Below are positions 20,901 to 23,900 of a stretch of 64,000 bases of DNA, piece after piece. This DNA comes from Antedon mediterranea (taxonomy: Eukaryota > Echinodermata > Crinoidea > Comatulida > Antedonidae). Where the stretch lies: positions 28,730,912-28,794,911 of the forward strand of contig NC_092675.1 in NCBI RefSeq assembly GCF_964355755.1, written 5' to 3'. The notes under the pieces were generated by a model that saw only the letters and a list, made by a program, of their open reading frames with translations, had not been told where the DNA came from and searched no databases. Position numbers and translations under genes: made by a program. How positions within the stretch are numbered: the stretch's first letter is position 1; each line of letters begins with the position of its first letter.

Positions 20901-23900
20901 CAATACCAGTGAATAAGGTAATTTTACCACTACAAAGGGGTGTTATTTCACCGTTTGTATATTAGTTTCAAACAAATACCTCATATTTCTTTCTTGCTAT
21001 TCATAATTGTGTATATAAATCTTGTCTGATGCGTGCTTTGATTTTTGTATGAATATTCATAAGGTCATTTGAAAAAAAACTGAAGCTCAGTCTAAACTTT
21101 ATATGGAAAAAAAAGTGATGTGCCCAAATATGGACATGATTGTGTCATAGCACTATCATAAATGGGCACATCATAGTTTGATATTGTAGACAGAGCTTTA
21201 GATTGACTGATCTTGTTTATTTTTTTATTTTTATTTTATACTCATCCAACAGCGAGTAACCCGCCAATTACAGGATGGATAAACTATTTAATAATTTCAC
21301 AAGACTTATTATTAAGTCTTTGGGAGTGGAGTTGTAAATTGTCATGAGAAAAAAACCCTGACATATGACAGGACTTGAACCCAGGACCCTTAGATTGGTA
21401 GCCAAGCATCATAACCACCAAGCCACAGCTCCACTCTACTTTAATTAGTAGAACAATTGTGACCAAATAAATATGCTCATAGATTTAAATAATGTTTTCT
21501 ATGAAACTAAATTAATACATTATTATTAAATTGTCAATATAGATAACACAAGAACGTGGTCAGTTTATGATCACTTTCCCATATGGTTACCATGCTGGTT
21601 TTAACCATGGCTTCAACTGTGCCGAATCAACAAACTTTGCCTCAAAGCGTTGGATTGACTATGGCAAGCGGGCCAGCCATACTTGTGTGAGTATTAGGTC
21701 ACCTTACATTTGTCATTGATTGACTATGGCAAGCGGGCCAGCCATACTTGTGTGAGTATTAGGTCACCTTACATTTGTCATTGATTGACTATGGCAAGCG
21801 GGCCAGCCATACTTATGCGAGTATTAGGTCACCTTACATTTGTCATTGATTGACTATGGCAAGCGGGCCAGCCATACTTGTGTGAGTATTAGGTCACCTT
21901 ACATTTGTCATTGATTGACTATGGCAAGCGGGCCAGCCATACTTGTGTGAGTATTAGGTCACCTTACATTTGTCATTGATTGACTATGGCAAGCGGGCCA
22001 GCCATACTTATGCGAGTATTAGGTCACCTTACATTTGTCATTGATTGACTATGGCAAGCGGGCCAGCCATACTTGTGTGAGTATTAGGTCACCTTACATT
22101 TGTCATTGATTGACTATGGCAAGCGGGCCAGCCATACTTGTGTGAGTATTAGGTCACCTTACATTTGTCATTGATTGACTATGGCAAGCGGGCCAGCCAT
22201 ACTTGTGTGAGTATTAGGTCACCTTACATTTGTCATTGATTGACTATGGCAAGCGGGCCAGCCATACTTGTGTGAGTATTAGGTCACCTTACATTTGTCA
22301 TTGATTGACTATGGCAAGCGGGCCAGCCATACTTATGCGAGTATTATGTCTAGTTTGATAGTGTAAACAGAGCTGTAAGCATTACACAAGATCCATGTTC
22401 TATATATATTACTTCCATATACTGCTGTCAATCCTATGGGCAGCTGACAAACGTATCAATAATATAAATGCTTTCAAAACAGACAACACATAATAATGGA
22501 GCATCCTCAATACAAAACATGATTGTTTATACTTTATCATTTTGAATGTAATTTTTCTATAAAATATGGCATGTTTACAGTAGCATTTTATGAATATCTT
22601 TCTCTTTTCCATATTACTATTCTCATGTTTATAAATATATATTTTGGTTATCCATTTATTTTCTTCAGTTTTTGTATTTTGTAATTTAACCTAATTTGGA
22701 AAATATAACCTTTTTACCCATAGTGCAATTGTCAACGAGATTCAGTGAAAATTAGTATGGATCCGTTTGTAAAGAAATTCCAACCAGAACGTTATGAGTT
22801 GTGGCTTGCAGGCAAAGACAACATCCATATTCAGGAGGTGGACGGGGTCAAGTCACAGGCACAGCTCCAGAGCCAAGATGGAAGCAAAAGGTTGGTGATT
22901 GTTATTCTGGTCTGAGTGGCCTGTGTATTTATGGTGACTGGTGCAGAAAGACTTGGACTCGTATTGTCACTTATGATCTGATATTTACTGTGTCTCATTT
23001 TCAAACTAATAGTACCTTTATTAGATTAAAATGTACAACAAACATAAATTCATATGTGCACCACTCTTTGAATGTACTTAGTTTTTGTGTGTTTACATCT
23101 ACAATGTCTAAAGCTCTGTCTACATTATCAAACTAATTTGACAAAAAAGGTGTGATGTGCCCAAATATGGTAGTGATACAGTATGCTTAAATATGGTAGT
23201 GATATGCTTAAATATGGTAGTGATATGCTTAAATATGGTAGTGCTATTACATCATCATGGCACATCACATTTTGTTGTCACTTAAAGTTTGATAGTGTAG
23301 ACAGAGCTTACGATATAAAATAAATTCTACAACCAAAGTTGAAATTTAGAATGTGCTTGCATAAAACACATAAGTTAAGAATTATTCTTGTTTTTTTTTT
23401 TACAGTAAACTGTCCAAAGATAAAAAGCATTCTGGTCAAAAGAGTAAAGGAAGTAGGAGGCAGCCGCTGGTAAACAAGAAAGACTCACCAGGGCCTAAAA
23501 CAGCAGCATCACCGCGTAGGGCTAAGAAAAAGAAAGACAAGAAATCAAATCTTGCAGATGAACAAGAAACATCAACTAATTACGAGGAATCGGATCGTGA
23601 AAAAGTTGTAGTAAAAGCTGGAAGAGGAAGGCCTAAGAAAATAAAGGAAGAAGCGGTGAGAGGAATAGAGGGCGATAGTGCGATAAATGCGACACGAATG
23701 CTTCACAACGTACGTAGGGAAATAAATATGGAGTCGAAATTGTTAGAATCAAGTGTACAGTTAGTGGATGTTGGCGGAAGTTTACCTATTCACAATGTAA
23801 ATAACTCTGAAATAACAATGGATAATAGGGAGTCAGTTGGTAAAACAGAGCATGTTAAGGAGTCAGTCTGTAACACTGAGCATGTTAGGGAGTCAATCTG

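What the first reader, a model, noticed from the sequence alone, without database searches (positions are those of the whole stretch)
21653..22347. Minisatellite that multiplies a coding exon end and its splice donor
The 65-bp unit of an 11-copy array is the last 34 nt of KDM4 exon 7, its GTGAGT donor and 31 nt of intron. Eight units keep the donor and three (type B) have GT changed so it is lost, in the order AABAABAAAAB, as if an AAB triplet was amplified. A row of decoy donors directly follows the real one in an enzyme-core exon. Use of any later donor adds an in-frame stop, so array length could tune productive KDM4 mRNA. The repeat structure is seen; the regulatory role is inference.
Basis: partly seen in the sequence, partly recalled or inferred. 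Interest (0 to 1): 0.75.

Follow-up and report, generated by a model that had tools for sequence, protein, structure and literature searches.

The report
Splice-donor tandem repeat in KDM4 gene
In an animal genome, the end of one exon of the histone demethylase gene KDM4 and its splice signal are repeated eleven times in a row; such splice-signal repeats are already known in at least three human genes, so this is a clean new example of a known kind, and any effect on the gene's output is untested.

Summary
Window 21653-22350 has ten full 65-bp units plus a partial eleventh: 34 nt of KDM4 coding-exon end, a GTGAGT donor and 25 nt of intron. The order is AABAABAAAAB. Eight A units read TGT|GTGAGT; three B units read TAT|GCGAGT. 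The 11 genome matches found for the unit all lie here. The gene is KDM4 (E about 1e-165 to human KDM4A); no second KDM4 was found. Every later donor meets the same TGA at 21717.

The architecture is not new. Human CBS has a 31-bp VNTR of exon end plus donor; ABCA7 has a 25-bp VNTR starting at an exon's donor GT; IFI6 has a minisatellite giving several donors. In ABCA7 the second donor accounts for about 2% of transcripts, not varying with array length, although total expression falls with length.

Most likely this is a young, homogeneous minisatellite that copied an exon end; the first donor gives the conserved protein and later donors probably leak a little into stop-containing mRNA. Tuning by array length is possible but untested. 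The array ends within 2 bp of a truncated MITE-like end, a possible seed. Unit hairpins and MITE origin of the intronic part were not supported.

The parts
21543..21686 (+). KDM4 coding exon 7 (144 nt, residues 253-300, catalytic core)
   Evidence: acceptor TATAG, donor TGT|GTGAGT, open frame; protein matches human KDM4A
21653..21717 (+). unit 1 (type A): last 34 nt of exon 7, the real donor at 21687 and 31 nt of intron
21718..21782 (+). unit 2 (type A), decoy donor at 21752
21783..21847 (+). unit 3 (type B), donor changed to GCGAGT at 21817
21848..21977 (+). units 4 and 5 (type A), decoy donors at 21882 and 21947
21978..22042 (+). unit 6 (type B), GCGAGT at 22012
22043..22302 (+). units 7 to 10 (type A), decoy donors at 22077, 22142, 22207 and 22272
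22303..22350 (+). partial unit 11 (type B), GCGAGT at 22337; leaves the repeat at 22347
21717..21719 (+). TGA met in frame by every modelled mRNA that uses a donor later than 21687
22350..22377 (+). remnant end of a MITE-like element abutting the array
   Evidence: 26 of 28 bases match the copy at 55659-55686; 29 such ends in the window including this one
22724..22890 (+). KDM4 coding exon 8, starts with codons for CNC (the Cys-x-Cys pair of KDM4)

Best explanation
It is a young minisatellite whose unit happens to take in the end of KDM4 coding exon 7, its splice donor and the start of the intron (31 nt, donor included). Shown: eleven near-identical units, eight intact donors and three GC variants that share one linked pair of changes, so blocks of units (or conversion) and not only single units were copied; a stop met by all later donors. 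Inferred: the first donor makes nearly all productive mRNA, because it alone gives the conserved protein and the shortest exon (144 nt, against 209 to 729 nt with the later GT donors). The later identical donors are used at low level and give transcripts that stop ten residues after the exon 7 codons, lose the Cys-x-Cys of exon 8 and are probably degraded. Array length may shift this leak or affect neighbouring splicing or expression, but that need not have been selected. Array birth beside a truncated MITE-like end suggests that the duplication arose at an insertion or deletion scar.
For: Repeat anatomy, and no match to the unit elsewhere in the assembly. KDM4 identity and frame. No second KDM4 seen in the genome. 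Type A donors are identical in sequence and in U1 pairing energy (-7.4 kcal/mol), type B is much weaker (-3.7). Comparable arrays are common here: 14 in a 200-kb sample and 5 in the window by one rule. ABCA7, whose array also starts at a donor, uses its second donor in 2 +/- 1% of transcripts, independent of length (PMC5954066, passages).
Against: No RNA, reads, second individual or relative was available, so donor choice is untested. With identical donors, high SR protein levels can favour the intron-proximal site (recalled), which would make the leak large. CBS is reported to lose activity as copies rise (PMC5188458, passage) and ABCA7 expression fell with array length, so a length effect is not excluded. 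In the CBS 844ins68 allele, a single duplication of another exon boundary, splicing is reported to favour strongly the more distal of the two sites (PMC2630376, passage), so 'the first copy wins' is not a general rule. In IFI6 downstream units are used.
Confidence: 0.75

Rival explanations
1. The array is a length-tuned regulator: each extra donor captures some U1 and diverts pre-mRNA to stop-containing transcripts, so copy number sets KDM4 output, and B units are donors silenced by selection.
For: Eight identical strong donors and a common stop; the only two positions that vary among the full units both lie at the donor and one kills its GT; the CBS VNTR is reported to lower activity with repeat number; ABCA7 expression falls with array length.
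Against: ABCA7 second-donor use did not depend on array length, and its authors do not ascribe the loss of expression to those transcripts. The two B changes are most simply one linked variant copied three times, so they give little statistical support for selection. No polymorphism or RNA data.
Confidence: 0.12
2. Assembly artefact: the true allele has one or few units.
For: Units are almost identical and no reads are held.
Against: Two unit types in a non-periodic order are not what simple stutter makes. The assembly is chromosome-scale (18 contigs; the nine contigs sampled are 26-41 Mb). Similar arrays are common elsewhere.
Confidence: 0.06
3. The intronic part of the unit is itself a piece of the neighbouring MITE-like element, so that the unit is an exon-transposon chimera.
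For: The element's remnant begins within 2 bp of the array; the 25-nt tail aligns to a copy near 41900 with score 25.
Against: 139 of 2000 dinucleotide shuffles of the tail reach that score, and 39 of 3000 random window 25-mers; for the mean score over the 28 copies the numbers are 81 of 2000 and 28 of 3000: suggestive at best.
Confidence: 0.2
4. The unit is a hairpin former (exon half pairs with intron half and hides the donor), which drove both duplication and regulation.
For: RNA minimum energy structure puts the donor in a hairpin (-15.8 kcal/mol).
Against: Type A z-score -0.67, 49 of 200 shuffles fold as well; type B z -1.25, 22 of 200; 597 of 3000 when only the tail is shuffled, and 137 of 1314 window stretches of like G+C fold as well; DNA z -0.95 and -0.78.
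Confidence: 0.04

Closest known systems
Human CBS 31-bp VNTR, c.1444_1467+7(16_21)
   Same: By its name the unit is the last 24 coding nt of an exon plus 7 intron nt, so it takes in the donor; 16-21 copies, with single-base variants between units (PMC2630376, passages); more repeats reported to mean less activity (PMC5188458, passage).
   Different: Human gene, shorter unit, known polymorphism (the review passage calls it non-coding sequence at the exon 13/intron 13 boundary). Here: KDM4 of an unnamed animal, 65-bp unit with 31 intron nt, one assembled allele, and a stop at the first unit junction.
Human ABCA7 intron 18 25-bp VNTR
   Same: Array begins with the GT of the exon 18 donor; using the next donor keeps one unit, shifts the frame and gives a premature stop (PMC5954066, passages).
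   Different: Unit is intronic only; about 12 to 427 copies; length goes with exon 19 skipping and lower expression, not with second-donor use.
Human IFI6 (6-16, G1P3) minisatellite with multiple splice donors (Turri et al. 1995)
   Same: A minisatellite supplies several donors; two downstream units serve as donors, giving three mRNA species (as stated in PMC4526556, passage).
   Different: The original paper is not held; only its title and citing passages were seen; short unit (12 nt, recalled).

Membership tests
Exon-boundary VNTR carrying splice donors (CBS, ABCA7, IFI6 kind) | Tandem array starting at or across a real exon-donor boundary | tested here: met
Exon-boundary VNTR carrying splice donors (CBS, ABCA7, IFI6 kind) | Units carry further potential donors | tested here: met
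   8 of 11 units keep GTGAGT, 7 of them downstream of the real donor
Exon-boundary VNTR carrying splice donors (CBS, ABCA7, IFI6 kind) | Copy number varies between individuals | not testable with these tools
   one assembly, no reads
Exon-boundary VNTR carrying splice donors (CBS, ABCA7, IFI6 kind) | Later donors are used, or length affects expression | not testable with these tools
   no RNA data held
KDM4 histone demethylase | JmjN and JmjC domains and close match to KDM4A-D | tested here: met
   Pfam JmjN and JmjC over cut-off; KDM4A E 1.6e-165
KDM4 histone demethylase | C-terminal PHD and Tudor domains | tested here: inconclusive
   PHD-like zinc finger over cut-off at 28364-28576; Tudor_2 26.4 bits, under its cut-off of 31.4, at 30094-30366; the three other downstream ORFs given to the call matched nothing

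The most novel reading that the evidence does not exclude
A copy-number-variable row of decoy donors acts as a rheostat on what may be the only KDM4 gene of an animal: each added unit diverts mRNA to an early stop, and units with a killed donor (type B) are kept because they relieve the load, so chromatin demethylase dosage would vary heritably and fast between individuals.
Probability: 0.08. Interest if true: 0.65.

Novelty: new member of a known kind. Interest (0 to 1): 0.35.

Why it matters
If length mattered, it would give a natural dosage series for a chromatin enzyme with identical competing donors, a clean test of how position alone decides 5' splice site choice (all eight A donors sit in identical 65-bp units). 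If not, it is another example of an exon-boundary minisatellite that a gene tolerates. It extends to a KDM4 gene of another animal a kind known here from three human genes.

Tried and rejected
MITE origin of the unit's intronic 25 nt: best score 25, reached by 139 of 2000 shuffles and 39 of 3000 random window 25-mers, so left as a possibility. Hairpin unit: not significant (exon half against reverse complement of intron half, 760 of 3000 tail shuffles reach the observed score). Second genomic copy of the unit: none found. Second KDM4: none found, the four hits outside the window's contig are at most 39% identical (misses possible). MITE ends as general seeds of arrays: of 17 arrays examined this one alone has such an end within 100 bp (the 17 are 11 of the 14 sample arrays, leaving out two MITE-internal 21-bp arrays and one 215-bp satellite that fills its 10-kb stretch, plus six window arrays: the five and 44081-44468). 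Literature: a search for KDM4 with tandem repeat and splice donor gave 2 papers that by title are on other subjects, not opened; VNTR, splice donor site, each repeat, exon gave 0. The first exon model was one base off at the end of exon 1 and so out of frame; it was corrected.

Full report
What is there. TRF finds one array at 21653-22350, period 65, 10.7 copies, 98% matches. Unit by unit, eight units (1, 2, 4, 5, 7, 8, 9, 10) are identical over all 65 bases. Units 3, 6 and 11 share exactly two changes, at unit positions 33 and 36, and unit 11 leaves the repeat after 44 bases. A search of the whole assembly (354 Mb, 18 contigs) with the unit gives 11 matches, all in this array (that search can miss).

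The gene. Eight coding exons between 17916 and 22890 were placed by eye on the sequence and checked for splice signals and frame (one boundary was corrected between the two). Exon numbers count from the predicted start codon. The joined 355 residues match human KDM4A with E 1.6e-165 over residues 7-337 and carry JmjN and JmjC. Four hits elsewhere in the genome to this protein are at most 39% identical, so no second KDM4 was seen. Exon 7 is 21543-21686 and ends in TGT|GTGAGT; exon 8 starts at 22724 with TGC AAT TGT. Of the eleven donor positions only 21687 joins to exon 8 without a stop. In the KDM4A alignment the Cys-x-Cys pair lies in exon 8; that these are zinc ligands is recalled.

The decoys. 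Each A unit has the same donor, -7.4 kcal/mol with the U1 end (U1 letters recalled), within the best 1.5% of 3706 GT sites of the window's + strand (the eight A sites counted among them) and third of the eight KDM4 donors; the B form gives -3.7 and has GC in place of GT. Using any of the ten later positions meets the TGA at 21717, after ten extra residues. Donors 2 to 10 would make exon 7 209 to 729 nt long instead of 144, and the GC site of unit 11 794 nt.

History. The B pair of changes in three non-adjacent units means that blocks of units were duplicated, or conversion took place. The order is AAB AAB AA AAB. 6 of 165 arrangements of three B among eleven have every B preceded by at least two A and end in B, a pattern chosen after the fact. 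The lack of other differences makes the array young or recently homogenised (inference). Without 650 bases (ten units) the intron would be 387 nt instead of 1037.

The right edge. From 22350 the sequence is a truncated end of a MITE-like element, 26 of 28 bases like the copy at 55659. The window holds 29 such ends and a 200-kb genome sample 17. The array lies 2 bp from this end as the TIR query places it. None of the 16 other arrays examined has such an end within 100 bp: for 7 the nearest is 517 to 5683 bp away, and 9 lie in sampled stretches that hold no such end at all. With 29 ends in 64 kb a chance contact within about 10 bp is of order 1% by my own arithmetic. It may be a scar where the first duplication arose. 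The idea that the 25-nt intronic tail is itself MITE-derived is not significant.

Base rate. By one rule (period at least 10, at least 4 copies, at least 80% matches) there are 14 arrays in 200 kb of sampled genome and 5 in the window. The sample is twenty 10-kb stretches at round-number positions on nine of the 18 contigs; two of its 14 arrays are internal repeats of the MITE-like element and one is a satellite that fills its stretch. The five window arrays cover 2424 bases, 3.8% of the window. If the window's genes have a few dozen donors (estimate), one or two donors inside arrays would be expected without selection. So an array on a donor is not a rare coincidence in this genome.

Known relatives. 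Three human cases have this layout or nearly so. CBS c.1444_1467+7(16_21) is by its name an exon-end plus donor unit of 31 bp in 16-21 copies (PMC2630376, passages); a review passage states that more repeats reduce activity (PMC5188458; the primary paper by Lievers was seen only as a reference). ABCA7 has a 25-bp VNTR starting at the exon 18 donor; retention of one unit through the next donor gives a premature stop, is about 2% of transcripts and does not vary with length, while exon 19 skipping rises and expression falls with length (PMC5954066, passages). IFI6 has a minisatellite that provides multiple donors (Turri et al. 1995, not held; seen as a reference entry in PMC2572611, and through citing passages in PMC4526556, PMC2915984 and PMC3618361). 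Against a simple 'first copy wins' rule, PMC2630376 also tells of a CBS duplication at another exon boundary (844ins68) where splicing strongly favours the more distal of the two sites.

Verdict. The most likely reading is a tolerated young minisatellite with a dominant first donor and a small leak. A regulatory rheostat is possible, has a partial precedent in CBS, and cannot be tested without RNA or population data.

Noticed in passing
23826-23978: A 30-bp x 5.1 array (86% matches) inside a 414-codon open frame that continues KDM4 after exon 8: a coding repeat of about ten residues whose period is a multiple of three.
   Followed up: partly
27653-27940: 48-bp x 6 array, 98% matches, apparently in a KDM4 intron: a third minisatellite in the same gene.
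   Followed up: no
window-wide, e.g. 5457-5606, 23109-23309, 38234-38396: Abundant MITE-like element with ends like AGTTTGATAGTGTAGACAGAGCTTTA and internal 21-bp repeats that themselves occur in arrays; 29 ends in the window against 17 in a 200-kb sample.
   Followed up: partly
49820-53773: A long open frame (50588-53212) that looks by eye like a retrotransposon polyprotein, between flanking stretches with the same translated sequence, like a short LTR retrotransposon; not tested.
   Followed up: no
61369-62426: 23-bp x 46 array, 95% matches, the longest of the window.
   Followed up: no
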